Virus record (IMG/VR): IMGVR_UViG_3300033145_001841
Span: 1-64,000 of that record
Origin: a virus
Reading direction: 5' to 3' (one strand)
Length of the DNA: 64,000 nucleotides
Below are positions 1,124 to 40,427 of this stretch, one piece after another. A model generated the notes under the pieces. The model had not been told where the DNA came from, did not search any database, and saw only the letters and a list, made by a program, of their open reading frames with translations. Made by a program: the position numbers and the translations under genes. Position 1 is the stretch's first letter. Each line of letters begins with the position of its first letter.

Positions 1124-2077
1124 ATGAAACGATATGGCAATTTATTCAATTCTGTATTCAATGAAGAAAATCTATATAATGCCCATTTGGATGCTAGAAA
1201 AGGCAAACGAAAGAGATCTTCTTGCTTTAAATTTGAAAAGAATTTAAGCAAAAATTTGTTTGATTTACATAATGAAATTCATATCGGTAAATATTACCCA
1301 CAACCATATTTTAAATTTATCGTTTATGAACCAAAGAAAAGGATTATTTATGCTCCGGCTTTCCGAGACACTGTGGTCCAACACGCCATTTATAGGGTGG
1401 TTTATGATATTTTCGATAAAACATTTATCAGTAAATCATTTGCTTGTCGCCGAGGCTATGGAACTCACAAGGCAAGTGATTATACCCAATGGGCCTTAAG
1501 ACAACATGAACCAGACGAGTATACGTTAAAGCTCGATATCCGAAAATTCTTTTATTCGATCAACCGAGAGATCCTAAAAAGTCAGGTCGAGCGGAAGATA
1601 AAAGATGAAAGATTGGTAAATGTGATGATGATGTTCACCAAAATGGATGAACCGGACGGTATCCCAATCGGGAATCTTTTAAGCCAGATATATGCGCTGA
1701 TCTATCTAAACCCAATGGACCATTTCATCAAGCGTGTACTTAAAATTAAACACTATGTCCGATATGTGGATGATTTTATTTTGATCGGATTAACCCGCCC
1801 CCAATGCCTTGAATACCGGGCGATGATTATCCAATGGTTGCGTGACAATTTACATCTGCAGCTATCAAAATCAACCATTCAAAAGGTAAAAAAAGGTCTG
1901 AATTTCGTTGGTTATCGAACATGGCGGAGCAAGCGGTTTATCCGAAAATATAGTCTTTATAAATTCCGGCGTGCCGTCAAGGCCGGGAAGCGGGATGTTG
2001 TTGTATCATTGTTCGGCCATGCTAAAAACACTCAGTCAGTGCCATATATGGCCGGAATTCTACGGGGGGAACACTGA
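1124..2077 (+). CDS. DGR reverse transcriptase
   Basis: 317 aa. Group II intron/DGR-type reverse transcriptase. Visible motifs are LDIRKFF (metal-binding Asp about residue 138), IPIGNLLSQ (179-188, the form of motif 4 typical of DGR enzymes where other RTs have QG), and the YVDD active site (214-217). A C-terminal thumb-like basic region follows. It would copy TR RNA with adenine misincorporation for transfer to VR. The stop overlaps the ATG of the next gene. No maturase or endonuclease domain is present, consistent with a DGR and not a mobile intron. Confidence 0.95.
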   Translation: MKRYGNLFNSVFNEENLYNAHLDARKGKRKRSSCFKFEKNLSKNLFDLHNEIHIGKYYPQPYFKFIVYEPKKRIIYAPAFRDTVVQHAIYRVVYDIFDKTFISKSFACRRGYGTHKASDYTQWALRQHEPDEYTLKLDIRKFFYSINREILKSQVERKIKDERLVNVMMMFTKMDEPDGIPIGNLLSQIYALIYLNPMDHFIKRVLKIKHYVRYVDDFILIGLTRPQCLEYRAMIIQWLRDNLHLQLSKSTIQKVKKGLNFVGYRTWRSKRFIRKYSLYKFRRAVKAGKRDVVVSLFGHAKNTQSVPYMAGILRGEH

Positions 2078-3768: not shown

Positions 3769-4033
3769 CGGGGTAGTGTTTGGGGTAGTGACGTTTGACA
3801 ATCCGTGCAAAATATGACAAAATACCCCAAAAAATACCCCACTGTTTTTTGACTTTACGCTATCCATGCGGTTTTTAACGATATCCAGAGCGCCTTTTAG
3901 CCCTGTTACTTGCCTTTCACGCCTGCGACAGGGGTTCGAATCCCCTTGGGGACGCCAAATGATTTTAGGGGGTTAGCCGTTTATTGGTTGGCCCCCTTTT
4001 CATTTCGGGGTAGTGTTTGGGGTAGTGACGTTT
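3769..4033. other. Phage attachment site (attP) with integrase arm-type repeats
   Basis: The centre (about 3911-3957) is the 3-prime half of a tRNA-Glu gene: anticodon loop CTTTCAC, a T-arm with loop TTCGAAT, acceptor strand and encoded CCA. The 5-prime half of the tRNA is absent. Two identical 28-bp direct repeats at 3769-3796 and 4006-4033 flank it, each holding two GGGGTAGTG units, and an inverted version lies at 3821-3843. This is the layout expected of a P-arm / core / P-prime-arm attachment site for the adjacent tyrosine integrase. Because no full tRNA precedes the integrase gene, this is best read as attP and not attL or attR. Confidence 0.85.
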
Positions 4034-5039
4034 CGAAAGATAGATTTTCAACCGCATTTTTCACATCGTCCTGAACATTATAAATGTACCGATCCGTTGT
4101 GGTCGGAGCCGCATGGCCGAGCAGCTTCTGAATGGTCGGGATGGACTTTTTATATTTGTCGGCCAGCAGGGATGCAAACATTCTCCTGATTGCATGAAAG
4201 CCCACCCTACCCTTCTCGATCCCCGCCTTTTTACATAATCCGTGAATGAACCTTCTCCTGGTCGTGTACCCTGCCCCGTAGTGGCTGTGATTTGGCTCCC
4301 GGTTCTGGAAAACGAAGTCTGACATGGGTAATTTGTTTTTCCACTGGTCCTGCAAGCAACTAAACGCCATGTCGTTCATGGGCGCATATCGGTATTTCAT
4401 GGAACCATCCCTTGACTTTCTGCTCCCTAATCGGATTGTGCGCTTCTCAAAATTGATATCGTCCGTCCAGGTCAGCCGAAAGATTTCTGAGCGCCGGGCC
4501 CCTGTTGTCCCCAAAACCACCAAAAGGTTCCGACCGTGCCTAGTTGCAGCCAACATAATGCGAATGAACTCATCCTCAGTGAATACAGCCTGTGGTCCCC
4601 TGTTGGACGGGAGCTTATCAATGCCCACTACCGGGCTAACAGGCAGCTTGTGAAATTTCATAGCGTAATTGAAAAATGCCAGTAGTTCTTTCCTGGCTCG
4701 GTTAAACCGCGACGCGGGCGTGATCATCTTGAGGTAGTCCCACACGTCTTTCGTGGTAATATTCAGGATCGGCGTATCTGGTGGGTATTTACAAAGCAAT
4801 CTTTTCAAGTGCCTCCGCTTTGTTTTGTATGTGCTTTCGATGTACTTGATTTCGGCAAATGACAAATAATCGTTAATGACTTCCAGCAAAGAGCCCGTGT
4901 GGGTCTGCTTGAGATAAGAGCTTTTGGTCTCCCTTTCCCATGCGATTGCCTCTCTTTTTGTACGGAATGATTTTTGCGCGATGCGCTTCTGGCTGACTGT
5001 CACGACTCCGCGCCATCTTCCCCGATCCTTGTAAGGCAT
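3981..5039 (-). CDS. int: Tyrosine integrase
   Basis: 352 aa. An N-terminal AP2-like arm-binding domain (residues 1-50, rich in basic residues) is followed by a SAM-like core-binding domain and a C-terminal catalytic domain with the Arg of GTTGARRSE, the HAIRR box and the final GHAAPTTTDRY with the tyrosine nucleophile. It catalyses integration and excision at the neighbouring tRNA-Glu site. Its last codons overlap one of the arm-site repeats, so that DNA is both coding and, by inference, a binding site. Start is the ATG inside the 3-prime end of the upstream excisionase-like gene. Confidence 0.95.
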   Translation of the reverse strand: MPYKDRGRWRGVVTVSQKRIAQKSFRTKREAIAWERETKSSYLKQTHTGSLLEVINDYLSFAEIKYIESTYKTKRRHLKRLLCKYPPDTPILNITTKDVWDYLKMITPASRFNRARKELLAFFNYAMKFHKLPVSPVVGIDKLPSNRGPQAVFTEDEFIRIMLAATRHGRNLLVVLGTTGARRSEIFRLTWTDDINFEKRTIRLGSRKSRDGSMKYRYAPMNDMAFSCLQDQWKNKLPMSDFVFQNREPNHSHYGAGYTTRRRFIHGLCKKAGIEKGRVGFHAIRRMFASLLADKYKKSIPTIQKLLGHAAPTTTDRYIYNVQDDVKNAVENLSFETSLPQTLPRNEKGANQ

Positions 5040-8264: not shown

Positions 8265-8636
8265 TTATGCTTCCTTATTCCAATCGACCTCAAAAAACCC
8301 CAATTTCCCCAGGCACGGAACAAAATCAACCGCCTCCGAATTCTCAAAAACGAAACCCCAAGGTCCGAAGAAGAAAGGGCTTTCGTGGTGATCAACGCAA
8401 TCCACGATTCGGGACTTTCCGACTATGCCGCCCATGAAGAAATCATCCCTGTGCGGGATTTCGGCGTCCAACAAATCACGGTGTTCCAAGAGCCATTGGT
8501 ATCCAATATGATCGAATTTCTTCCCCGCATGGATCAGGAACGGGCCTGTAATCCTGGTGGGCCAGGTCCGATTTTCAACCGGCTTCCCGTGCAGAATTGC
8601 CCAGGCCCAGGGTTGTCTTATTGATAGTGCTCTCAT
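8265..8636 (-). CDS. ASCH-domain protein
   Basis: 123 aa. The N-terminus (RALSIRQPWAWAIL...KPVENRTW) is the signature of ASCH domains, a PUA-like fold that binds RNA or modified nucleotides; some members hydrolyse N4-acetylcytidine. ATG preceded by GAGGT. Upstream of a hypothetical gene whose start carries the poly-G tract. Substrate unknown. Confidence 0.85.
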   Translation of the reverse strand: MRALSIRQPWAWAILHGKPVENRTWPTRITGPFLIHAGKKFDHIGYQWLLEHRDLLDAEIPHRDDFFMGGIVGKSRIVDCVDHHESPFFFGPWGFVFENSEAVDFVPCLGKLGFFEVDWNKEA

Positions 8637-8660
8637 TTTTTTACCTCGCAATATAACAAT

Positions 8661-8840
8661 TTAGCTGACTTGCGGCGGTTGTTTGCCGTCAGAGTCCAGC
8701 GGCTGGTTAGCTATTTTGGTAAGTTCATGTCCTTGCCAACATTTTGTTCCGTAGCCCTTTTCCAGGTCTGTATATTTCGTTTGGCACGTTTTGCACTCCC
8801 ACGTTTTAGGCTGAAGATGATCCGTGCGCCCATTCCACAT
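8661..8840 (-). CDS. Small zinc-ribbon protein
   Basis: 59 aa beginning MWNGRTDHLQPKTWEC, with AAAGGAG 6 bp before the ATG. CKTC near residue 17 and a later C...H give a zinc-ribbon-like pattern. It is the first gene downstream of the cassette array and has no attC after it. Function unknown. Confidence 0.65.
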   Translation of the reverse strand: MWNGRTDHLQPKTWECKTCQTKYTDLEKGYGTKCWQGHELTKIANQPLDSDGKQPPQVS

Positions 8841-8856: not shown

Positions 8857-8944
8857 AGCTAACGATATAGTTCACCGGCCCCTGCGGGGGACTCCAAATT
8901 TACAGGGGGGACTTCCAGGGGGCCGGCGTGGCGGTTGGTTATGA
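8857..8944 (-). repeat. attC-like site 1 (integron-type recombination site)
   Basis: 88-bp imperfect palindrome bounded by GCTAAC on one side and GTTATG on the other. Inner arms CACCGGCCCCTG and CAGGGGGCCGGCGTG pair. It contains the stop codon of the PP-loop gene, as is common in gene cassettes. Sequence is clearly related to sites 3 and 4. Confidence 0.82.
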
Positions 8945-9658
8945 CCCGCAATGACACGGCGGGTACTCCATTTCTTCAAATAGAACTTTTTGATTTTCAT
9001 TAACAATCACAGGCAATGTTTTTTTTGAACTGGATAGGGTAAATGGCTTTTTCCCTTTTTCAATTGAATATTCCATGTTCGATTGTTCGAGCGCAACCGC
9101 ACGGGCAAACAAGCACGGGTGTTTCTGGCGCAATTCTTTCCATTGGCTTTTGCGCTGCATCGGGCAAATGTAACAGCCGGATCGGACAGGGACCGGCAAC
9201 CCATGTTGCTTAATGATCTCCTTGCACCCGTCACGGTCAATATCATGCTCGATCAACGGCCACCTGTTTTCAATGCCATTATTTACCCCTATTTTTGCTC
9301 TATGCGCTTCACCCGCGTCTATTCCCAAAAGTTGAAAGCACGGTGCTTTGACATGCTTTTCAATGATCTTGATTTTGTATTCCACGGTACACCACCTTTG
9401 ACGCATGGTCGGGACCATGCGGTATGCTTCACATTTATCTATCACTGAGCGGAATTTGCCGGACGGAAAAAGGATCGTAATCGGTCTATGCCCGTTGGCT
9501 TTTAGCCACCATTGGAACCCGGCGAGGTAATCATACGTTTCCGGCCAGTCCGTCCCGTGGTGGGCAAATACGGATTCAAAGTCTGTTCCCTGATCCAAAA
9601 GCAGCAAATGAAGCGCAACCGAATTGACACCCCCGCCGAATGATAGGTAATTTTTCAT
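8939..9658 (-). CDS. PP-loop ATPase of the PAPS-reductase family (cassette gene)
   Basis: 239 aa. The N-terminal YLSFGGGVNSVALHLLL is a variant of the SGGxDS PP-loop that binds ATP in PAPS reductases, tRNA thiolases and DndC. A CYICPMQ pair of cysteines near residue 160 fits the family. Phage members are common; roles in nucleic-acid thiolation or sulfur chemistry are proposed. It is one of five minus-strand genes each followed by an attC-like site, so it appears to have been acquired as an integron-type cassette. GGAGC precedes the ATG. Confidence 0.85.
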   Translation of the reverse strand: MKNYLSFGGGVNSVALHLLLLDQGTDFESVFAHHGTDWPETYDYLAGFQWWLKANGHRPITILFPSGKFRSVIDKCEAYRMVPTMRQRWCTVEYKIKIIEKHVKAPCFQLLGIDAGEAHRAKIGVNNGIENRWPLIEHDIDRDGCKEIIKQHGLPVPVRSGCYICPMQRKSQWKELRQKHPCLFARAVALEQSNMEYSIEKGKKPFTLSSSKKTLPVIVNENQKVLFEEMEYPPCHCGS

Positions 9659-9674
9659 GTTTTTGCTCCAAAGG

Positions 9675-9736
9675 GTTATAACGCTTGAGTTAAGCCGCCG
9701 CGCTGTTTGCGGTCGGATTGAACGCCTGGTTGTAAA
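9675..9736 (-). repeat. attC-like site 2
   Basis: 62-bp site. On the minus strand it runs from the end of the preceding gene through CGGCTTAACTCAAGCGTTA, which is nearly the same as the right half of the classic aadA-type 59-base element. Left and right arms pair imperfectly. It overlaps the last codons of the 9690-9977 gene. Confidence 0.82.
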
Positions 9737-9977
9737 CGTTTACGCCAAAACCATCCTCGCAAAGCTCAACAAGTTCGCTCTTGGACAAATCGCCCAAACT
9801 CGGAACCGCGCCCTCTGCAAGCTCGTTGAATTTAACACCATCATCTGCGAGGAGCTCAATATCGCCTTCAAATATCCAACACCAGTTATCAACATAAGTG
9901 CAGTTGGCCTTTAGCAACTTTATCGCTTCAGGAGACTGCTCTTTTGCTACTACTATCAGAGTTGTCCAAAATTCCAT
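9690..9977 (-). CDS. Hypothetical cassette protein
   Basis: 95 aa from the ATG at 9977 (the next upstream ATG at 9986 adds three residues). Starts MEFWTTLIVVAKEQSPEA; acidic middle part (EGDIELLADDGVKFNELAEGAVPSLGDL). No known domain. The final codons run into attC site 2. Short, promoterless and in line with the other cassettes. Confidence 0.65.
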   Translation of the reverse strand: MEFWTTLIVVAKEQSPEAIKLLKANCTYVDNWCWIFEGDIELLADDGVKFNELAEGAVPSLGDLSKSELVELCEDGFGVNVYNQAFNPTANSAAA

Positions 9978-10006
9978 GGTAACCATCCTTTTTTTATGTT
10001 TGTACA

Positions 10007-10091
10007 GATAACGCTTTAGCTCACCGCCCCCCTGCGGCGAACTCAAAATTTACCGCGGGCTTCCAGGGGTCCGGTGGAGCAGTTGGTTATA
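10007..10091 (-). repeat. attC-like site 3
   Basis: 85-bp palindromic site bounded by ATAACGC and GGTTATAC. Inner arms (plus strand) CTCACCGCCCCCCTG and CCAGGGGTCCGGTGGAG pair. Shares long blocks with sites 1 and 4, so the three belong to one attC family. The stop codon of the upstream gene lies at its edge. Confidence 0.87.
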
Positions 10092-10356
10092 CCGTTTCTA
10101 GCAAAGCGTGTATTGCGTTGATTGCGACAATTTTATCTTGTTCGATCCCTGGTGATGCCCGCAAAGCGAGCTCCATTGCCTCAAGCTCTGCTTTTGTTTC
10201 TGCTCCAACGAGGGCCGCTAAGGCTTTTCGGAGTTTCCGCATTGGATGTTTTTCGCAAACCGTGATATGGTCTGTAAGGATTTTTGCTCCGTGTGGTGGT
10301 GTCCCTTCCGGGTACGCCATACCACAATAAATACAAGTCAATGTGTTGTTACTCAT
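10087..10356 (-). CDS. Small zinc-finger protein (cassette gene)
   Basis: 89 aa starting MSNNTLTCIYCG. The first 40 residues carry CIYCG...H...H..VCEKHPMR, a C2H/C-H type zinc finger seen in many small phage and cassette proteins. The second half is helical. AAAGGAG lies 8 bp before the ATG; the longer frame upstream runs into attC site 4 and is not used. Function unknown. Confidence 0.78.
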   Translation of the reverse strand: MSNNTLTCIYCGMAYPEGTPPHGAKILTDHITVCEKHPMRKLRKALAALVGAETKAELEAMELALRASPGIEQDKIVAINAIHALLETV

Positions 10357-10381
10357 TTTAAATCTCCTTTCTGCATGCAGG

Positions 10382-10467
10382 TATAACGTCCTAATCACCG
10401 GCCCCTGCCCGGCGAACTCCAAGTTTACCGGTTAAGCATCCAGGGTCCGGTGGAGTGATTGGTTATA
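10382..10467 (-). repeat. attC-like site 4
   Basis: 86-bp palindromic site bounded by ATAACG and GGTTATAT. Arms TAATCACCGGCCCCTG and CCAGGGTCCGGTGGAGTGATT pair with small bulges, which is the extrahelical-base arrangement of attC hairpins. Closely related to sites 1 and 3. Confidence 0.87.
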
Positions 10468-10662
10468 TTGCCTTAATGCAAAACTTTCTATTGTATGTTC
10501 ATTTCCAATGTGCACTATTTTGTCATCGTGCACTACGTAGTGTGTACCCATTGCTAACAAAGCGATTGGAGCAGACATACCCGTATAGTTGGAGTGATCT
10601 ATTACGTGGACCTGCATTTTTGCAAATTCTAATTTTTCGAGTACTTTTTTTAGGTTTTCCAT
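10432..10662 (-). CDS. Hypothetical cassette protein
   Basis: 76 aa, MENLKKVLEKLEFAKMQVHV..., with GGAGGG before the ATG. A short helix followed by a beta-rich segment (VHVIDHSNYTG...GTHYVVHDDKIVHIG). No family recognised. Its stop codon lies inside attC site 4. Confidence 0.65.
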   Translation of the reverse strand: MENLKKVLEKLEFAKMQVHVIDHSNYTGMSAPIALLAMGTHYVVHDDKIVHIGNEHTIESFALRQYNQSLHRTLDA

Positions 10663-10674
10663 AACTCCCTCCGG

Positions 10675-10733
10675 TTATAACGCCAAAATCAGCGGCACGG
10701 CTTTTTGTGTCCGCTGCATTTTTTTGTTATGCC
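10675..10733 (-). repeat. attC-like site 5
   Basis: 59-bp palindrome bounded by TTATAACGCC and GTTATGCC with inner arms AATCAGCGGCACGG and GTGTCCGCTGCATTT. Shorter than the others. It lies directly after the stop of the restriction-modification gene, ending that cassette. Confidence 0.85.
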
Positions 10734-10734
10734 A

Positions 10735-13590
10735 TCACTCATCTATCTGCCACAATGCTTTTAACCTGTCCTGTATTTTTTGTTCAAAATACATCGCAAT
10801 TTCTTTTTGTCTGTTTATCATTTGTTGCTCGTATTCAATCTTTTGTATAATTTGTTCCTGCTCGATTATAGATGGGACAGGTATTTTTAGACTTTTAATA
10901 ACGTTTGCATTGAATTGTGGTTGGCCCGTCCCTGTTGCTAAAGAATTGGCCTGTGTCCAATATTCATCAGCTTGCGAAAAAATCCAAAAAAATTTAGGGA
11001 GAATTGTCTTGTTGAAATTTAAGCGGATTAAATAGGATGCAAAAACAGCCTTTATGTTAGTCTCTATCAATACGCTTTTCCCGTATGTAGCACCAGTTCT
11101 TGCTATAAAAATATCGCCATTTTTCACAAGATACTCATTGATCCTTTCTTGTGAATTGATATATTTACAATCAACATCAGAAAGCATGCATTCATGTGTA
11201 ATATCTGTAATTCGGATAAAACGATAGTCCCCAATTTCTAAACCTGTTGATGTTAAACCATACTTAAGGGTTGCAATATCGGCAAGTTTTGCTGATTCCC
11301 ATTTCGGATTAAAGGGTAAGTATGGCTTGTATCCATCAATAACCAACTTAGCCCCGTCAATGATTTGCTGGTAATTTTCAAGTTCTTTTACGATATCATG
11401 TTGTTTCTTAAGGGATGGCAATGGTATCTCATAAGTAGATATTTTACTTTTGGAAACTTCTTTAAAAGTTGTTCCAGTTGCTAATGTGCCGATGTTAAAA
11501 GCTTCATGCTTTAAAATATAATAGAGATATTCGGGGAGGATTCTTTTTTCATTGCACACAAAGTTTTTAAAACCTTGATTTGTACACGTCTCTTTTTCAG
11601 TAATACATACTTCACCAATGGTAGCCCTGCTCGAAAAAATTACGGCCTTCTTCGGCAATAATTTCGCATTACTATTATTCATTCCTGCCTGAGTTATTTT
11701 TCTTTCGGTTTCATAAAGATATTTTTGTTTTACATCTTTAATTGTCGCCCAATTTATATCCCCATCCCAATAATCTTTATTTTTTATGCTTGGCGTTCCA
11801 CCATTCACAATTTCGGCCACTTCGCCCAATTCGACCAGCCTATATTCACTCTGAATATTATAGAAATTAGATCGAGTAACTAAATTGTAATCATCGTTGG
11901 AAATGTCAGAAATATGAACGCCTTGAAAACCAATGGTATAAAGCAATTCTGAATCTTGTTTAGAGAGAGGTCTTTCGTTTAGAGCTGATGCATTGATTTT
12001 ATCTATATCACTTTCTTCGTTAATTTTTCTCCGATTATTATCCAATGTAAATCCGTCATTCTCAACCTTGAAACACCAATATGTCTGAGTTGATGTCTGT
12101 TCAATGTCAGTTAAATATAAAATATCTGTCTTAACTCCAGCATAAGGGAGGAAACATCCTTGGGGCAAAGATACGACACTATGAAGATTAGCATGTTCCA
12201 ACAAAAATCGTCTCGCAGGCTTTAATTCTTTCCTAAACAAAAAGCCTTCAGGGACAATAACCGCCATTCTTCCACCTGCTTTTAAACTTTTAAAACAATG
12301 AAGAACACACACTGTGTCGCCACTGTTTTTTCCAAGCCCGTCATAATATTTGTCCGTAACATCATTGATGAGTTTTCCGTCTTTGCCTTTCTTGGTGATT
12401 CTTTGAGAAAAAGGGATATTTGTCAAAACAATATCATATTGACCATCAACTGGATTTTCCAAGCTATCTATCTGCGAAACGCCTGAATGACCATCTCCAT
12501 GCAAAATCATATTCATTTTAGCTATGCGTGAAGTTGTTGTAATCTCACGTCCCCAAATTGATTGTGATCTTAGGAACTCTACTGCCTCTTCATTATGTTC
12601 TAAAGATTCTCGGATATGGTTAAATACCCCCGTCAAAAAGCCTCCCGTCCCACAAAATGGATCGTATGTTTTTTCCCCGAATTGTGGGTTGACCAAGTTT
12701 ACCATTGCTTTGATAATATGGCGGGGGGTAAAGTATTCCCCTAGATCGTTCTGTGTTGACGTGGTTTTTTCAAGGAAATATTCAAATGCCCCTCCTTTTA
12801 TATCTTCGTCAACCGGCGTTAGGTGGAGAGGGTCAAGACGTTCAATAATATCATCGAGGGTGGAAGGTTTTCTAATGAGCAGTGTGGAAAACACGTCCCC
12901 TCCATATTGCTTAGCGATACTTTTTAAGACGATTTTATTGATATAATCAATTCTCGTTTTGCTCTGTTGTTTTTTTATGTCATTCCATATCGAACTTTTA
13001 TTGTGCTCGCTGAGTAATTTGAGAAACAGAATGTTGGCAAATTCGCTAAATCTCTCAATTCCAGCCCTCAGCCCTTCCCCTCTCAAGACATCATTCAAAT
13101 CTCCGAACAAAGAAATCATGTCCTTTCGTGAACGAATCACCTCTTTTGGGATGGTATAGAGATCGTTCGTTTTTTCTGTCAAATATCCGAGGGCCTCTTT
13201 AACTCGAAGAAGTTCCTTGACTTCTTGCCCATTCAGAAGAAGCGTTTTTGAGTTCTGAACATAACGAGTTTTGCAGAACGTTCCATTAATCGCAAAAACA
13301 AGAGGAGCCTTGAGTTTTTTTGCATATTTTGTTCCCTGATCTAAGGCTTTGTCTAAATCTGCCCCTGGTTTTTTTGCTTCAATTACTCCAAGCGGGACAT
13401 ATGAATCATCAACATGGCCTTTATACAAAAGAGTATAGTCAGGACGTTTTCTCCCTAATTTCTTTGAATACCCTTGAGGCAGGGAAGACTCAAAATAAAC
13501 ATTCCGTAGCGGATCATCAGGGTTGAGAATCCATCCTTTGTTTTCTAATGTCCGATCTATTCTATATCTTACATCAGCTTCTAAGGCCAT
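10735..13590 (-). CDS. Single-chain restriction-methylation-specificity (R-M-S) fusion enzyme
   Basis: 951 aa. Residues 1-150 form an HsdR-N-type nuclease domain with a PD-(D/E)XK site (Asp51 ... Glu71-Ala-Lys73). About 160-560 is an HsdM-type adenine methyltransferase with motif I DPFCGTGG (310-317) and motif IV NIPF (391-394). About 590-951 is an HsdS-type specificity module with two target-recognition halves, each ending in a long coiled helix. There is no helicase motor, so it should act like a type IIG enzyme and not translocate as type I does. AT-rich compared with neighbours. It is the largest gene of the cassette array. It could protect phage DNA or exclude competitors. Confidence 0.88.
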   Translation of the reverse strand: MALEADVRYRIDRTLENKGWILNPDDPLRNVYFESSLPQGYSKKLGRKRPDYTLLYKGHVDDSYVPLGVIEAKKPGADLDKALDQGTKYAKKLKAPLVFAINGTFCKTRYVQNSKTLLLNGQEVKELLRVKEALGYLTEKTNDLYTIPKEVIRSRKDMISLFGDLNDVLRGEGLRAGIERFSEFANILFLKLLSEHNKSSIWNDIKKQQSKTRIDYINKIVLKSIAKQYGGDVFSTLLIRKPSTLDDIIERLDPLHLTPVDEDIKGGAFEYFLEKTTSTQNDLGEYFTPRHIIKAMVNLVNPQFGEKTYDPFCGTGGFLTGVFNHIRESLEHNEEAVEFLRSQSIWGREITTTSRIAKMNMILHGDGHSGVSQIDSLENPVDGQYDIVLTNIPFSQRITKKGKDGKLINDVTDKYYDGLGKNSGDTVCVLHCFKSLKAGGRMAVIVPEGFLFRKELKPARRFLLEHANLHSVVSLPQGCFLPYAGVKTDILYLTDIEQTSTQTYWCFKVENDGFTLDNNRRKINEESDIDKINASALNERPLSKQDSELLYTIGFQGVHISDISNDDYNLVTRSNFYNIQSEYRLVELGEVAEIVNGGTPSIKNKDYWDGDINWATIKDVKQKYLYETERKITQAGMNNSNAKLLPKKAVIFSSRATIGEVCITEKETCTNQGFKNFVCNEKRILPEYLYYILKHEAFNIGTLATGTTFKEVSKSKISTYEIPLPSLKKQHDIVKELENYQQIIDGAKLVIDGYKPYLPFNPKWESAKLADIATLKYGLTSTGLEIGDYRFIRITDITHECMLSDVDCKYINSQERINEYLVKNGDIFIARTGATYGKSVLIETNIKAVFASYLIRLNFNKTILPKFFWIFSQADEYWTQANSLATGTGQPQFNANVIKSLKIPVPSIIEQEQIIQKIEYEQQMINRQKEIAMYFEQKIQDRLKALWQIDE

Positions 13591-13631
13591 AATCGTATCC
13601 TTTTTTAAATCTCAATCTTGTATGGTGCGGG

Positions 13632-13652
13632 TATAACCAGTGGTTGAACGAT
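13632..13652 (-). repeat. Partial attC/attI-like core upstream of the first cassette
   Basis: GTATAACCAGTGGTTGAACG resembles one outer arm of an attC site, with a GGTTATAC core on the minus strand. It lies at the upstream boundary of the restriction-modification cassette, where the previous site of the array would be expected. No full palindrome, so this may be a remnant or secondary insertion site. Confidence 0.4.
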
Positions 13653-13663
13653 TTTTTTTGTCA

Positions 13664-13903
13664 TCAAATATCCATTTCCGTATATTGGCCGACAAATTCC
13701 AAGAACTCAAAAAGTGCCCGCCCCGCCTCAGTGCGCGTAAACACGTCCACCTGATGCCGAGGCGCGTCAAAGGGGTTGGGCTTGTCTTTCTCTGGGAAAT
13801 GCGGCAGTGGCGCCACTGGGGAGCCCGTATACCCCGGCGGGTGTTCGGCCTGTAGTCTTTGCCACATTTCGGCTTCAGTTTCTTTTTTCAATTCAAACCC
13901 CAT
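13664..13903 (-). CDS. Hypothetical protein
   Basis: 79 aa, MGFELKKETEAEMWQRLQ..., proline-rich centre (HPPGYTGSPVAPLPHFPEKDKPNPF) and helical C-terminus. No known domain and no clear Shine-Dalgarno sequence. Sits between the tRNA-like element and the cassette array. Confidence 0.55.
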   Translation of the reverse strand: MGFELKKETEAEMWQRLQAEHPPGYTGSPVAPLPHFPEKDKPNPFDAPRHQVDVFTRTEAGRALFEFLEFVGQYTEMDI

Positions 13904-13931
13904 TTATATGATCGACAACTTGTTTTTTGTG

Positions 13932-14127
13932 GGGAGGATGAGGAATCGAACCCCAGACAGCCTCGCAGATTCAAATACCAAACTTTACAGCGTAACCGGT
14001 GTGCAATAAATTCGGTGGTTTATCTTCTTTTTTCGCTTACTAATTAGGTTGCCATGCTTTGTGGCCACTCCACATGGTTTTCTAAGATTTGTGCGGCGAG
14101 ACAACTCTACCACTGAGTTATCCTCCC
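13932..14127 (-). other. tRNA-like element interrupted by an insert of about 130 nt
   Basis: On the minus strand, GGGAGGA and TCCTCCC at the two ends form a perfect 7-bp acceptor stem. An ACTC...GAGT D-arm with loop AGTGGTA and a T-arm with loop TTCGATT are present. The anticodon stem GTCTC / GAGGC would be split by a structured insert (arms CCATG / CATGG inside). No CCA is encoded and no anticodon can be assigned. Could be a decayed tRNA, a tRNA with an unusual intron, or a tRNA mimic. Much shorter than a group I intron. Confidence 0.45.
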
Positions 14128-14207: not shown

Positions 14208-15416
14208 TTATGCACATATTTTCTCCTGCAACATCGTTTTCCGAATACCAGAAACTTCAACCTTAATCGCTTGCTCAATCGCCCGGAATTGGCCGACTGT
14301 AATGCAAATCTCCCGAGCCCTGGAAATCGCTGTATAAATCCATGGCCTATTCACTAAAAAAGAAAACGATTTATGAACCGGGATAATGATCACTGGCGCC
14401 TCGGATCCTTGGAACCGATGACAGGTTATCGAATAAGCGAGCAATAAATGGTTGACGGCCTTCGGGAATGAAACGATTCGATCTGGATCAAAGAATTTCG
14501 CTTTAATTTCCTTTTCTGTGACTTCCAGAATTTTACACAAATCACCGTTGACCACATATTCGTTTTCAATGGATTGATTCTTTGTTTGGATCGCCTTATC
14601 ACCAGGCTTGAATTTACATCCTTTAACGGGTTTTTCAGGGTTTAAAGCTTTCTGCAGGGACTCGTTAATGCCATTGCATGACATGGCGGTTCTGGTATTT
14701 GTGGGGCTTAAAACCTGGATGTCCCAAATCGGATCATATCCGCGGGCAGGCAATCGGGTTGAAACCAATTCGCGGATGATTTCCACGATTTTGATAGGGT
14801 TCGGCTGCTCGATATGCCGGATGTTAAGGCCGGATTCCGGATCTAATGAAGGGGAAGGGGCATATCGTTTGCCTGATTTGATTTGATGGCACGATTTAAC
14901 GATATCGCCCGAGTTACGGAATACTTGATCAAGTTCAATGGTTGGGATGGCCCCAGAATTGAGAAAGTCCCTCAATACACTCCCAGGAGAAATAGACGGC
15001 AATTGATCTTGATCACCGATAAAAAGAATCTTTGTTTTACTCACATCAACGGCCCTTAAAAGATCCGCCATTAAATCGCATCCAACCATGCTTGTTTCGT
15101 CACAAACCACAAAGTCGCAATCAAGGGGGTTGCTTTCATTCCTGGTAAAACAAAACTCACCCGCATCCATTTGGGCATCCAAAAGCTTATGTATCGTGGA
15201 AGCGGGTTCGCCGGTTGCCTCAGACATTCTGCGGGCGGCCTTTCCTGATGGAGCACAAAGCTTGATATTTTTGCCACTTGATTTCATTTTTAAAAGGACT
15301 TCATTTAAGGTGGTCGTTTTCCCTACGCCGGGGCCACCTACAATTAGAGCGATCCGGTTGCTCTCCATTATACTTGTCGCTTCAAATTGCTTTTCAGTAA
15401 GGGTTAAACTGCCCAT
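14208..15416 (-). CDS. RecD2-type helicase, C-terminal half (motor domains)
   Basis: 402 aa. Contains the SF1B helicase core: Walker A GGPGVGKTTT (about 27-36), motif II DETSM, motif III GDQDQLPS, and the C-terminal SITCHRFQGSE / YTAISRA motifs. It starts exactly where the helicase domain of RecD2 normally begins. The missing N-terminal OB/helix-hairpin part is the separate gene at 15991-16875. The two halves are separated by a homing endonuclease gene. Together they probably make one 5-prime to 3-prime helicase used in phage recombination. Confidence 0.9.
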   Translation of the reverse strand: MGSLTLTEKQFEATSIMESNRIALIVGGPGVGKTTTLNEVLLKMKSSGKNIKLCAPSGKAARRMSEATGEPASTIHKLLDAQMDAGEFCFTRNESNPLDCDFVVCDETSMVGCDLMADLLRAVDVSKTKILFIGDQDQLPSISPGSVLRDFLNSGAIPTIELDQVFRNSGDIVKSCHQIKSGKRYAPSPSLDPESGLNIRHIEQPNPIKIVEIIRELVSTRLPARGYDPIWDIQVLSPTNTRTAMSCNGINESLQKALNPEKPVKGCKFKPGDKAIQTKNQSIENEYVVNGDLCKILEVTEKEIKAKFFDPDRIVSFPKAVNHLLLAYSITCHRFQGSEAPVIIIPVHKSFSFLVNRPWIYTAISRAREICITVGQFRAIEQAIKVEVSGIRKTMLQEKICA

Positions 15417-15994
15417 CGTTCATTATTCCTTATTTTATGAAGGTGCTTATAGCTAATCCCGTTTTCATGCGCCAGTTTGACGGGTGGATATCCGAGTTCT
15501 AATTTTCGTCTTATTTCTTTGACCTTTTCCCAATTCAATTTAGTAGTTCTTTGGTTCCTACAATTTTCACCCTTTGTCACAAAACGACAATTCCCAGGTT
15601 TATAGTTCCCGTCATTATTGATTCTATCGATTGACAAATTGTCTTTATATCCACTTTTTAACGCCCATTTTTTGAATATAGAGAAATCGTTAGACCATTT
15701 CTGGCATACAGATATACCTCTTCCTCCATAATTTTTATAGCAAGCTAAATTTGGATTCTTGCATCTACGTTTCATATTAACCCAAATATTATAAAGCCTT
15801 GTCCCAAAACCACCATGTTTCCTGTTTGCGTTTCCTATCAATTTTGGCATAGCGCATCCGCATGATTTTGCTTGATTCCCGCTACTCAACCTTTTTTTGA
15901 CTTCCTTTTTGCAAAATTGGCAAAAGAATACTGCCCATGATTCACATTTTCCGCTTTTAAGTTTTTTCGTAGGAAGCTTTCTTACAAATCTCAT
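15404..15994 (-). CDS. HNH-type homing endonuclease inserted in recD2
   Basis: 196 aa. Pattern YKNYGGRGISVCQKW...SIDRINNDGNYKPGNCRFVT...N.RN is that of a widespread family of phage HNH-like homing endonucleases; an N-terminal CxxC...CGC zinc motif and a C-terminal NUMOD-like helix-turn-helix are also visible. Its start overlaps the stop of the RecD2 N-terminal gene by 4 bp (ATGA) and its end overlaps the start of the C-terminal gene by 13 bp, so it is a free-standing gene and not an intron. AT-rich relative to flanks. Confidence 0.88.
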   Translation of the reverse strand: MRFVRKLPTKKLKSGKCESWAVFFCQFCKKEVKKRLSSGNQAKSCGCAMPKLIGNANRKHGGFGTRLYNIWVNMKRRCKNPNLACYKNYGGRGISVCQKWSNDFSIFKKWALKSGYKDNLSIDRINNDGNYKPGNCRFVTKGENCRNQRTTKLNWEKVKEIRRKLELGYPPVKLAHENGISYKHLHKIRNNERWAV

Positions 15995-16875
15995 CTCAGC
16001 AACTCCTTTATCTTTTCAGCGATATACGCTTCATCCCTGGCCATGGCTTTTAAGGCCACACACTCATCCTCCCGAACAACCGCGCCTTTATCAATCGCCC
16101 TGGCCAATCCTTCACCCGGATCACACCGGATCATTGATTTGACTTCCTTCACCAATTCGGCAACCTCAATCCACACATGGCCCTCACCGTGCGTCTTTTC
16201 TCGTATCGCATAGATAACAGCGGCCTGCTGTCTAAATACCGATTGTGGCTTAACCTTGAAACGGTCAACGGCCAACCGATCAGCGGAAGGAAAACCGACT
16301 TGTTTCATCTGGATCAACCGGTATGGATTTTCCTTCAGCATGGCCACTGCGTCACCGCCCCATTTTTGTACCAAGTCCATGGGCAGGGATTGACGGAGCC
16401 CGGCGCCGCCTATGAGTTTTTCCAATTCGACCAAAGCGCCTTCTATTTCTTGATTTTTAACGATATGGGCCTGGATCTCTTTTGCCCGGGTAATGGTGAT
16501 TCCTTTAATATCGCGTGCGACCTGGTTTGGCTTGTCTCGAAGGGCGTCCAGGGTTTCAGCTCCGTAGGTCTCAACTAGCGTCCTTCCGGTTTTAGGGCCC
16601 ACAAAACGACATACCCTGACTATATATCTGAATATTCCGTCGACATCTTTTGGTATTACGATTTCATGGGTTGAAAATTTGAATTGCCGGCCATATTTTT
16701 GATCATTCACCCACTTTCCAAATAATTTTATTTCTAAGCCTATTTCCGGTCGAAGAATCTGACCCAAGGCAATAAAAGAAATACGATTATGTTGAAAAGA
16801 TCCAATTAGAAAACCTGTTTCTATATTCTGAAATCGGATATTCGTTAGAATCCCCTGCTCTGTTTCAGCTCCCAT
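15991..16875 (-). CDS. RecD2-type helicase, N-terminal half (OB and helix-hairpin-helix domains)
   Basis: 294 aa. The start (ILTNIRFQNIETGFLIGSF...) matches the OB-fold N-terminus of RecD2, followed by helix-hairpin-helix repeats (FVGPKTGRTLVETYG; IKGITITRAKEI) and the linker domain (NPYRLIQMKQVGFPSADRLA). It ends at the domain boundary before the helicase core. It should assemble with the product of 14208-15416. The ATG directly abuts the stop codon of the upstream endonuclease gene. Confidence 0.88.
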   Translation of the reverse strand: MGAETEQGILTNIRFQNIETGFLIGSFQHNRISFIALGQILRPEIGLEIKLFGKWVNDQKYGRQFKFSTHEIVIPKDVDGIFRYIVRVCRFVGPKTGRTLVETYGAETLDALRDKPNQVARDIKGITITRAKEIQAHIVKNQEIEGALVELEKLIGGAGLRQSLPMDLVQKWGGDAVAMLKENPYRLIQMKQVGFPSADRLAVDRFKVKPQSVFRQQAAVIYAIREKTHGEGHVWIEVAELVKEVKSMIRCDPGEGLARAIDKGAVVREDECVALKAMARDEAYIAEKIKELLR

Positions 16876-36884: not shown

Positions 36885-37080
36885 GCCGTGGCATAATCCA
36901 CGGCCCGGATTAGAAAGCCGGAATACTCGTAAGGTGCGCAAGCGCCTAAACCATAGAGCGCTTTTTTTATGCTCTGTGAACCCTTGGCGGGTTGTGCGCG
37001 GGAGCCTTCGGGCTCGCCGGTTTCCTTACGGGCCGGTCTTTCTAACCGTGTGCATCCCGCCTTTTTTTATTAGAAAGAAG
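36885..37080 (+). ncRNA. C4-like antisense RNA leader of the antirepressor gene
   Basis: About 195 nt of GC-rich, hairpin-forming sequence between a strong promoter and the AntA-type gene, in the place of C4 antisense RNA of P1, P7 and N15 phages. It includes GCGCAAGCGCCTAAACC, a GAGCC-TTCG-GGCTC hairpin and CCTTACG (37023-37029), which is complementary to CGTAAGG at the Shine-Dalgarno of the antirepressor (37107-37113). Antisense control of ant translation is the inferred role. Confidence 0.55.
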
Positions 37081-39190: not shown

Positions 39191-40057
39191 TCATTTCCAC
39201 CCCATCCCAACTCTAATTCTTTTACGCAAAACATCAACAGGACAATGCAAATATACATTCCGGATGGTATCTGCTGAATCCCCAAGCAGGACCGCCACGT
39301 CTTCTATTTTTACCCCTCCTATAAAGAATAAATAAGAAGCCGTATAATGTCTGAAAGTGTGCGCGCCTCTTCCGTCCCTCCCGTTCTTAAACCCAAGGTC
39401 TTTCAGCATCCCGTTGACAATTTCCTGGACACGGCCGACGTCCGGGAATGTTTTACTCAGCCATGCTTTTTTCCCGACCTCGGATTGTCGTGCCACCATC
39501 AGCTTGTGGGTCTCCTTCGAAAAGAACGCCGGTCGCGGCTCAGTTTTCGAGTCAGAAAGAAACAGCGTGCCGGCCGCCATGTCAATATCCGTCCCCCGCA
39601 AAACAGCCAGCTCCCTTGCCCGGCAACCGGTTTCGATGAGAAGCGCGGTTATCAACCTGTCCCGCGTTGGGTTTGCGCTCCTGGGGAAGAAATAGGCCCG
39701 GCACTGCGCGATCTCGTCTTGAGACAGCCAACGCCTTGCATGTTTCAACTTGAAGGCCTTCTTGCCCTTGTTGCTGATCGAGAAGGTGTATTGCGATGGA
39801 CGCCCCGCCCACTTTAGGAATATTTTAATGCCGGTGAATTTCTGGTAAATGGTTTGGTCGGAAATTTTCCGCGCCTTGAGCGCCTTGGCCAGGGCGGGCA
39901 TATGCGATTCGATGTGTCTGACTTCCGTGATGCCGCTGGACGCTTCACAGAATTTGCGAAGGTCATTCAGGCTGATGGTGTATCCTTCGCGGGTGGTGGG
40001 GGCAAGGCTCTGCACCTTTTGGCTGTTCAGGTATTCATTGATCTTCTCCTTTATCAT
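39191..40057 (-). CDS. Second tyrosine recombinase
   Basis: 288 aa from MIKEKINEYL with AAGGAGG upstream. N-terminal SAM-like core-binding domain, then IETGCRARELAVL (catalytic Arg), HTFRHYTASYL (HxxR) and LLGDSADTIRNVYLH (Tyr). Asp replaces the usual His in the LLGH box. XerC/D-like size. It differs from int at attP. Could resolve dimers or be the integrase of an inserted element covering 38.6-47 kb. Confidence 0.88.
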   Translation of the reverse strand: MIKEKINEYLNSQKVQSLAPTTREGYTISLNDLRKFCEASSGITEVRHIESHMPALAKALKARKISDQTIYQKFTGIKIFLKWAGRPSQYTFSISNKGKKAFKLKHARRWLSQDEIAQCRAYFFPRSANPTRDRLITALLIETGCRARELAVLRGTDIDMAAGTLFLSDSKTEPRPAFFSKETHKLMVARQSEVGKKAWLSKTFPDVGRVQEIVNGMLKDLGFKNGRDGRGAHTFRHYTASYLFFIGGVKIEDVAVLLGDSADTIRNVYLHCPVDVLRKRIRVGMGWK

Positions 40058-40076
40058 TTGATCCTCCTTCAGGCGT

Positions 40077-40427
40077 TCACGACAGCCTTTTATCTTTCCC
40101 CCTGTCGCTCCAATCGCCTTCCCTGATGAACCTGGCAATGTTTTTCACCTTCGCTTGGCATGTCAGGCACAGGTGCGTATCTTCGTTGAACCCGAATTCA
40201 TTCCCGTCGCATTTGGAACAGAAGTAACATTTACTCTGGTTCGCTTGTTTGTAAAGGCTGTCAATCGGCTCGAAAAAACCTCCATGGTCCCTTCCCGCAA
40301 GGCCGTCTTCAACGTCAGACGCGACCAGATTTAGTATGAAATGCAGGATTACTTTCTGCTGTTCCGGTTGTAGTGAGTCCATTACCCGCTTTCCTGCTCT
40401 CATTACTGTTTCGGTTGCTTTTTTCAT
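40077..40427 (-). CDS. Hypothetical zinc-ribbon protein
   Basis: 116 aa from MKKATETVMRAGKRV; AAAGGAGA upstream. Helical start, then SKCYFCSKCDGNEFGFNEDTHLCLTCQAK, a four-Cys zinc ribbon. Role unknown. Confidence 0.7.
   Translation of the reverse strand: MKKATETVMRAGKRVMDSLQPEQQKVILHFILNLVASDVEDGLAGRDHGGFFEPIDSLYKQANQSKCYFCSKCDGNEFGFNEDTHLCLTCQAKVKNIARFIREGDWSDRGKDKRLS

What the first reader, a model, noticed from the sequence alone, without database searches (positions are those of the whole stretch)
8857..13652. Integron-type cassette array (CALIN) inside a phage genome
Five minus-strand genes are each followed by an attC-like palindrome with AAC/GTT ends; sites 1, 3 and 4 are clear relatives and site 2 carries the near-canonical CGGCTTAACTCAAGCGTTA half. 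Stop codons lie within the sites, spacing is tight and genes share one direction, all known traits of integron cassettes. There is no IntI-like gene in the window; the two tyrosine recombinases here are phage or Xer-like and lack the IntI-specific insertion as far as I can see. Arrays without integrase are known in chromosomes, and cassettes in phages are rarely reported.
Basis: partly seen in the sequence, partly recalled or inferred. Interest (0 to 1): 0.88.

Follow-up and report, generated by a model that had tools for sequence, protein, structure and literature searches.

The report
Six-cassette integron array in a phage
An uncultivated tailed-phage genome carries six genes packaged as integron cassettes, each ending in an attC recombination site, but no integron integrase; such arrays in phages have been reported before, and what this one adds is that four of the six genes belong to families that other phages mostly carry as ordinary genes.

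Summary
Six attC-type sites, not five, lie on the minus strand between 13635 and 8651, each at a gene's stop codon. A covariance model built only from 13 attC sites of plasmid class 1 integrons ranks four of them first in the 64-kb window (E 2.5e-7, 1.2e-4, 8e-4, 0.03). A refined model adds the site at 8651-8712 (E 0.011). The site at 8857-8944 scores weakly (E 2.3) but is a diverged copy of its neighbours. All six share the class 1 attC layout, with the unpaired base at the same place. About 900 kb of other phage DNA gave no hit. No IntI was found: both tyrosine recombinases score far below the integron-integrase cut-off and lack the IntI insertion. The record carries terminase, head protease and capsid genes. 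It is a CALIN in a phage, a kind already published (Qi et al. 2023). Homologues of four of the six cassette genes occur in other phages, mostly without attC; one of them, c2, sits between attC sites in a second phage. Further attC sites turned up in three other IMG/VR phages. The likely mechanism is host IntI acting in trans; mobility itself was not shown.

The parts
13630..13650 (-). Left boundary of the array: R-box-like core, CGTTCAACCACTGG|TTATACC, directly after a small phage ORF; proposed attG-type insertion point
   Evidence: Sequence; a 20-nt core is picked up weakly by R1, E 7.9 in a 5.9-kb search. Role is inference
10735..13590 (-). Cassette 1 gene: 951-aa protein with HsdR-type N-terminal region, N6-methylase and two specificity domains (type IIG/IIB-like restriction-modification enzyme)
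   Evidence: Pfam N6_Mtase 3.3e-48, Methylase_S 2.5e-43, HSDR_N 4e-5 just under cut-off; EcoAI-type R subunit N-terminus and PADLOC type I models; full-length relative in a phage fragment at 39.6%
10675..10732 (-). attC site D, ends cassette 1
   Evidence: R1 E 1.2e-4, R2 E 6.2e-6
10432..10662 (-). Cassette 2 gene c1, 76 aa, no convincing family
   Evidence: weak SecA-domain match only
10381..10468 (-). attC site C, ends cassette 2; the c1 stop codon lies inside it
   Evidence: R1 E 8.3e-4
10087..10356 (-). Cassette 3 gene c2, 89 aa; relatives in 16 other viral loci, in L218/L219 between attC sites
10006..10092 (-). attC site B, ends cassette 3
   Evidence: R1 E 0.03
9690..9977 (-). Cassette 4 gene c3, 95 aa; phage family (76% in L044, 43% in Vibrio phages), found there without attC
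9676..9735 (-). attC site E, ends cassette 4; near-canonical class 1 type, the c3 stop codon lies inside it
   Evidence: R1 E 2.5e-7; plasmid integron matches
8939..9658 (-). Cassette 5 gene c4, 239 aa, PAPS-reductase/SspD-like
   Evidence: phrog_424 E 2.4e-36, PADLOC SspD 3.7e-30
8857..8944 (-). attC site A, ends cassette 5 (diverged)
   Evidence: Repeat of sites B and C; R2 E 2.3
8661..8840 (-). Cassette 6 gene c5, 59 aa, weakly zinc-ribbon-like
   Evidence: R2 E 0.011; R1 E 7.6
8265..8636 (-). First gene after the array, ASCH-like phage gene, not a cassette
   Evidence: phrog_3193 2.7e-43; 77 relatives in viral contigs, none with attC nearby

Best explanation
The region is a genuine cluster of six integron gene cassettes without an integrase (a CALIN) inside a double-stranded DNA tailed-phage genome. 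Shown: six same-direction genes each ending in an attC-type site with the class 1 layout; no integron integrase in the record; phage structural genes in the same contig; relatives of four of the cassette genes in other phages. Inferred: an IntI supplied by an integron-bearing host inserted the first cassette at a G|TT site in the phage's leftward region, between the small ORF at 13664-13891 and the ASCH-like gene at 8265-8636, and later cassettes entered by attC x attC or attC x attG recombination using the folded bottom strand. The cassette genes would be read from the phage's leftward transcript. The contents look like phage accessory functions (restriction-modification, a PAPS/SspD-like enzyme, small proteins), so the array would let the phage gain and swap accessory genes by borrowing host recombination.
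For: The independent covariance model ranks four sites first in the window; the refined model adds F and confirms D out of sample; zero hits in about 900 kb of other viral DNA. In every site the unpaired base falls after R'' + 5 + 3 nt, as in class 1 attC, and the fit is better in the minus-strand polarity than in the plus. Site E matches plasmid integron attC sites. Stop codons lie in or next to the sites. No IntI. Phage genes: terminase, head maturation protease, major head protein, primase. Phage attC sites of this kind have been shown to recombine with attI1 through IntI1 (PMC9892861); insertion of cassettes at attG sites is known (described in PMC12901181).
Against: No empty site or relative with a different cassette content was found, so mobility is not shown. 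Sites A and F are weak by the independent model. Five of six R' boxes depart from GTTRRRY at the fifth base (GTTAT), although a class 1 site does too (L007). The record is uncultivated and may be incomplete; an IntI in a missing part and an assembly join cannot be ruled out. No chromosomal source integron was found: the one genome scan gave only chance matches.
Confidence: 0.87

Rival explanations
1. The palindromes are transcription terminators or regulatory hairpins between genes of an ordinary phage operon, resembling attC by chance.
For: All sites lie at gene ends and can fold into hairpins.
Against: No T-tract terminators coincide with them: 3 terminator-like sites found against 7.2 expected, none at a site. 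Hairpins alone would not give the attC sequence match or the fixed unpaired base.
Confidence: 0.03
2. A bacterial cassette array was joined to a phage contig by misassembly, or the contig holds a prophage next to a chromosomal CALIN.
For: The window is an uncultivated virus record; cassette 1 has lower G+C (0.37) than the whole window (0.47).
Against: The array lies inside the phage, with replication and recombination genes on one side and an ASCH-like phage gene and an integrase on the other; four of the cassette genes themselves belong to families found in phages.
Confidence: 0.06
3. One of the phage's own tyrosine recombinases, not a host IntI, moves the cassettes.
For: Two tyrosine recombinases are encoded; the one at 39191-40138 has a weak Phage_int_SAM_4 match, the N-terminal domain also found in IntI1.
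Against: Both lack the IntI-specific insertion and score far below the integron-integrase cut-off. None of the other attC-bearing phage records has an integrase over that cut-off.
Confidence: 0.04

Closest known systems
CALINs in virulent and temperate phages (Qi et al. 2023, PMC9892861), such as Tetrasphaera phage TJE1 and Pseudoalteromonas phage PH101
   Same: Same-direction cassettes with attC sites and no integrase in a phage genome, including methyltransferase genes; their sites recombine with attI1 through IntI1.
   Different: This record is an uncultivated IMG/VR phage, whereas their set came from NCBI phage genomes; it has six sites, carries a fused restriction-modification enzyme, and shares one cassette gene family with a second phage array.
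Class 1 integron gene cassettes (aadA, aac(6')-Ib, dfrA12 and others on plasmids)
   Same: attC architecture, position of the unpaired base, stop codons at the site; site E is close in sequence.
   Different: No intI1, no attI1, no resistance genes; long central loops in sites A, B and C.
CALINs of bacterial chromosomes (IntegronFinder term, PMC9024848)
   Same: Cluster of attC sites lacking an integrase.
   Different: Located in a phage; contents match phage gene families.

Membership tests
CALIN (cluster of attC sites lacking an integron integrase) | At least two attC sites close together by a covariance model | tested here: met
   Four sites E<=0.03 with an independent model within 1.1 kb, a fifth E 0.011 with a refined model. 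My own model, not the IntegronFinder one
CALIN (cluster of attC sites lacking an integron integrase) | No integron integrase nearby | tested here: met
   TIGR02249 best 23.6 bits against cut-off 265 in the whole record; no IntI insertion. Completeness of the record is unknown
CALIN (cluster of attC sites lacking an integron integrase) | Genes in one direction, stop codon in or next to attC (usual trait) | tested here: met
attC site | R''/R' boxes RYYYAAC ... GTTRRRY | tested here: inconclusive
   AAC and GTTA in all six; fifth base of R' is T in five of six, a departure also seen in a class 1 site
attC site | L''/L' pairing with an extrahelical base at the conserved place and one polarity | tested here: met
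   Six of six, best in the minus-strand polarity
attC site | Recombination by an integron integrase | not testable with these tools
   Shown for other phage attC sites in PMC9892861
Complete integron | intI gene with attI and Pc promoter | tested here: not met
   No IntI in the record; no attI identified
Phage genome | Virion and packaging genes in the same contig | tested here: met
   Terminase large subunit, head maturation protease, major head protein

The most novel reading that the evidence does not exclude
Phages have a cassette pool of their own: ordinary phage accessory genes have been turned into cassettes more than once and pass between unrelated phages by host integron integrases. 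Points in favour: relatives of c2, c3, c4 and the restriction-modification gene are phage genes, mostly without attC; c2 sits between attC sites in a second phage (L218/L219) with unrelated attC sequences and the opposite attC polarity relative to the genes; and site C shares 24 identical nucleotides of its left arm with the single attC in a third phage (L011).
Probability: 0.3. Interest if true: 0.75.

Novelty: new member of a known kind. Interest (0 to 1): 0.5.

Why it matters
Integrons are known for collecting resistance genes on plasmids and accessory genes in chromosomes. A six-cassette array made largely of phage-type genes suggests that phages can use the same system to gain and shuffle their own accessory genes, including restriction-modification enzymes, and could carry cassettes between hosts. 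The sites are ready for a standard IntI1 assay.

Tried and rejected
A scan for R boxes plus arm pairing, and a stricter rule with the unpaired base, gave about as many hits in shuffled sequence as in the window, so they were replaced by a covariance model. Rfam gave no attC-type match. A search of 84,980 bacterial and archaeal genomes for the site B/C left arm found 14 matches, all chance. A right-arm pattern in viral contigs gave 18 matches, of which only L011 is an attC; most others are one repeated sequence family without attC. No relative of the phage's RecD-like protein (viral contigs) or terminase (phage records) was found, so no empty site could be shown; 77 relatives of the gene next to the array share no synteny with it. 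A MAFFT alignment mixing phage and class 1 sites misaligned the right arms and was dropped.

Full report
What is there. The window is an IMG/VR virus record of 64,239 bases. Its right part carries terminase, head protease and capsid genes and its left part replication, recombination and accessory genes, mostly on the minus strand. Between 13635 and 8651, read on the minus strand, six genes follow one another, each ending in a palindromic site that starts ...AAC and ends GTTA....

Are the sites attC? I built a covariance model (R1) from 13 attC sites of class 1 integrons on plasmids, with the known R, L and unpaired-base layout and nothing from this window. Over the whole window with filters off its four best matches are sites E, D, C and B (E 2.5e-7, 1.2e-4, 8.3e-4, 0.03); F comes seventh at E 7.6. 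A second model (R2), trained with E, C, B and two other phage sites but not A, D or F, gives D 6.2e-6, F 0.011 and A 2.3. A is nevertheless a relative of B and C by direct repeat. R1 found nothing in 787 kb around 77 relatives of the neighbouring gene or in 111 kb of other viral loci. In all six sites the unpaired base follows R'' by 5 + 3 nt, as in class 1 sites, and the fit is better in the minus polarity than in the plus polarity in each case. Site E resembles sequence in 3862 plasmid records, and those opened were integrons.

No integrase. The best integron-integrase match in the record is 23.6 bits against a cut-off of 265. The recombinases at 3981-5039 and 39191-40138 lack the insertion present in IntI1.

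What the cassettes carry. Cassette 1 encodes a 951-aa fusion of an HsdR-type N-terminal region, an N6-methylase and two specificity domains, like type IIG/IIB enzymes; relatives lie in Acinetobacter phages at 42% and in one phage fragment at 39.6% over the full length. c4 is PAPS-reductase/SspD-like. c3 is a family found in 175 Vibrio phage records. c1 and c5 have no convincing family.

Are these genes always cassettes? No. The c4 relative in L004 (51%) and the c3 relatives in L044 (76%), L045 and two Vibrio phages have no attC after them. c2 relatives lie in 16 viral loci; in most no attC was found, but in L218/L219, two copies of one phage, c2 sits in a series of small genes separated by attC-type sites. 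R1 gives one site of that phage E 3.2e-7 and three others 0.04 to 0.7. There the attC polarity is opposite to the genes in all five sites tested. L044 and L011 carry one attC each.

Mechanism. The best reading is that an IntI from an integron-bearing host acts on the phage DNA in trans. The left boundary CACTGG|TTATACC and the right boundary AATTG|TTATATTGCGAGG are consistent with insertion at a single G|TT; joined, they leave a short gap between a small ORF and the ribosome-binding site of the ASCH-like gene. This step is inference. Insertion of cassettes at attG sites is described for IntI1, and phage attC sites work with IntI1.

Novelty. Qi et al. found integron parts in 21 phages among 10,705 genomes, with 17 CALINs. 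This is a further example, so a new member of a known kind. What goes beyond it is the phage-like content, and the c2 family appearing between attC sites in two unrelated phages but as an ordinary gene in most others.

Limits. Recombination, the host, and the junctions at read level could not be tested, and no empty site was found.

Noticed in passing
window 13931-14127, minus strand: ARAGORN with introns allowed finds a tRNA-Phe(GAA) whose anticodon loop is interrupted by about 122 nt. That is short for a group I intron and no Rfam intron family matched; whether it is a self-splicing element or a degenerate gene is open.
   Followed up: partly
L218/L219 4516-5582 and L238 3092-3142 (IMGVR_UViG_3300005403_000005): A second phage has at least five attC-type sites, one at E 3.2e-7 with the independent model, all in the opposite polarity to the genes they separate; one of the genes is a c2 relative.
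   Followed up: partly
L044 2060-2356: A single 86-aa cassette in another phage whose R-box-like core directly abuts the start codon (CGTTATGACC), upstream of a DNA methyltransferase-like gene.
   Followed up: partly
window 1124-2077, plus strand: Reverse transcriptase (phrog_1423, E 6e-101), possibly part of a diversity-generating retroelement.
   Followed up: no
window 36980-37067, plus strand: C4 antisense RNA, 62.5 bits.
   Followed up: no
window 14208-16875, minus strand: RecD2-like helicase spread over separate ORFs: helicase part at 14208-15416, OB and HHH part at 15991-16875.
   Followed up: no
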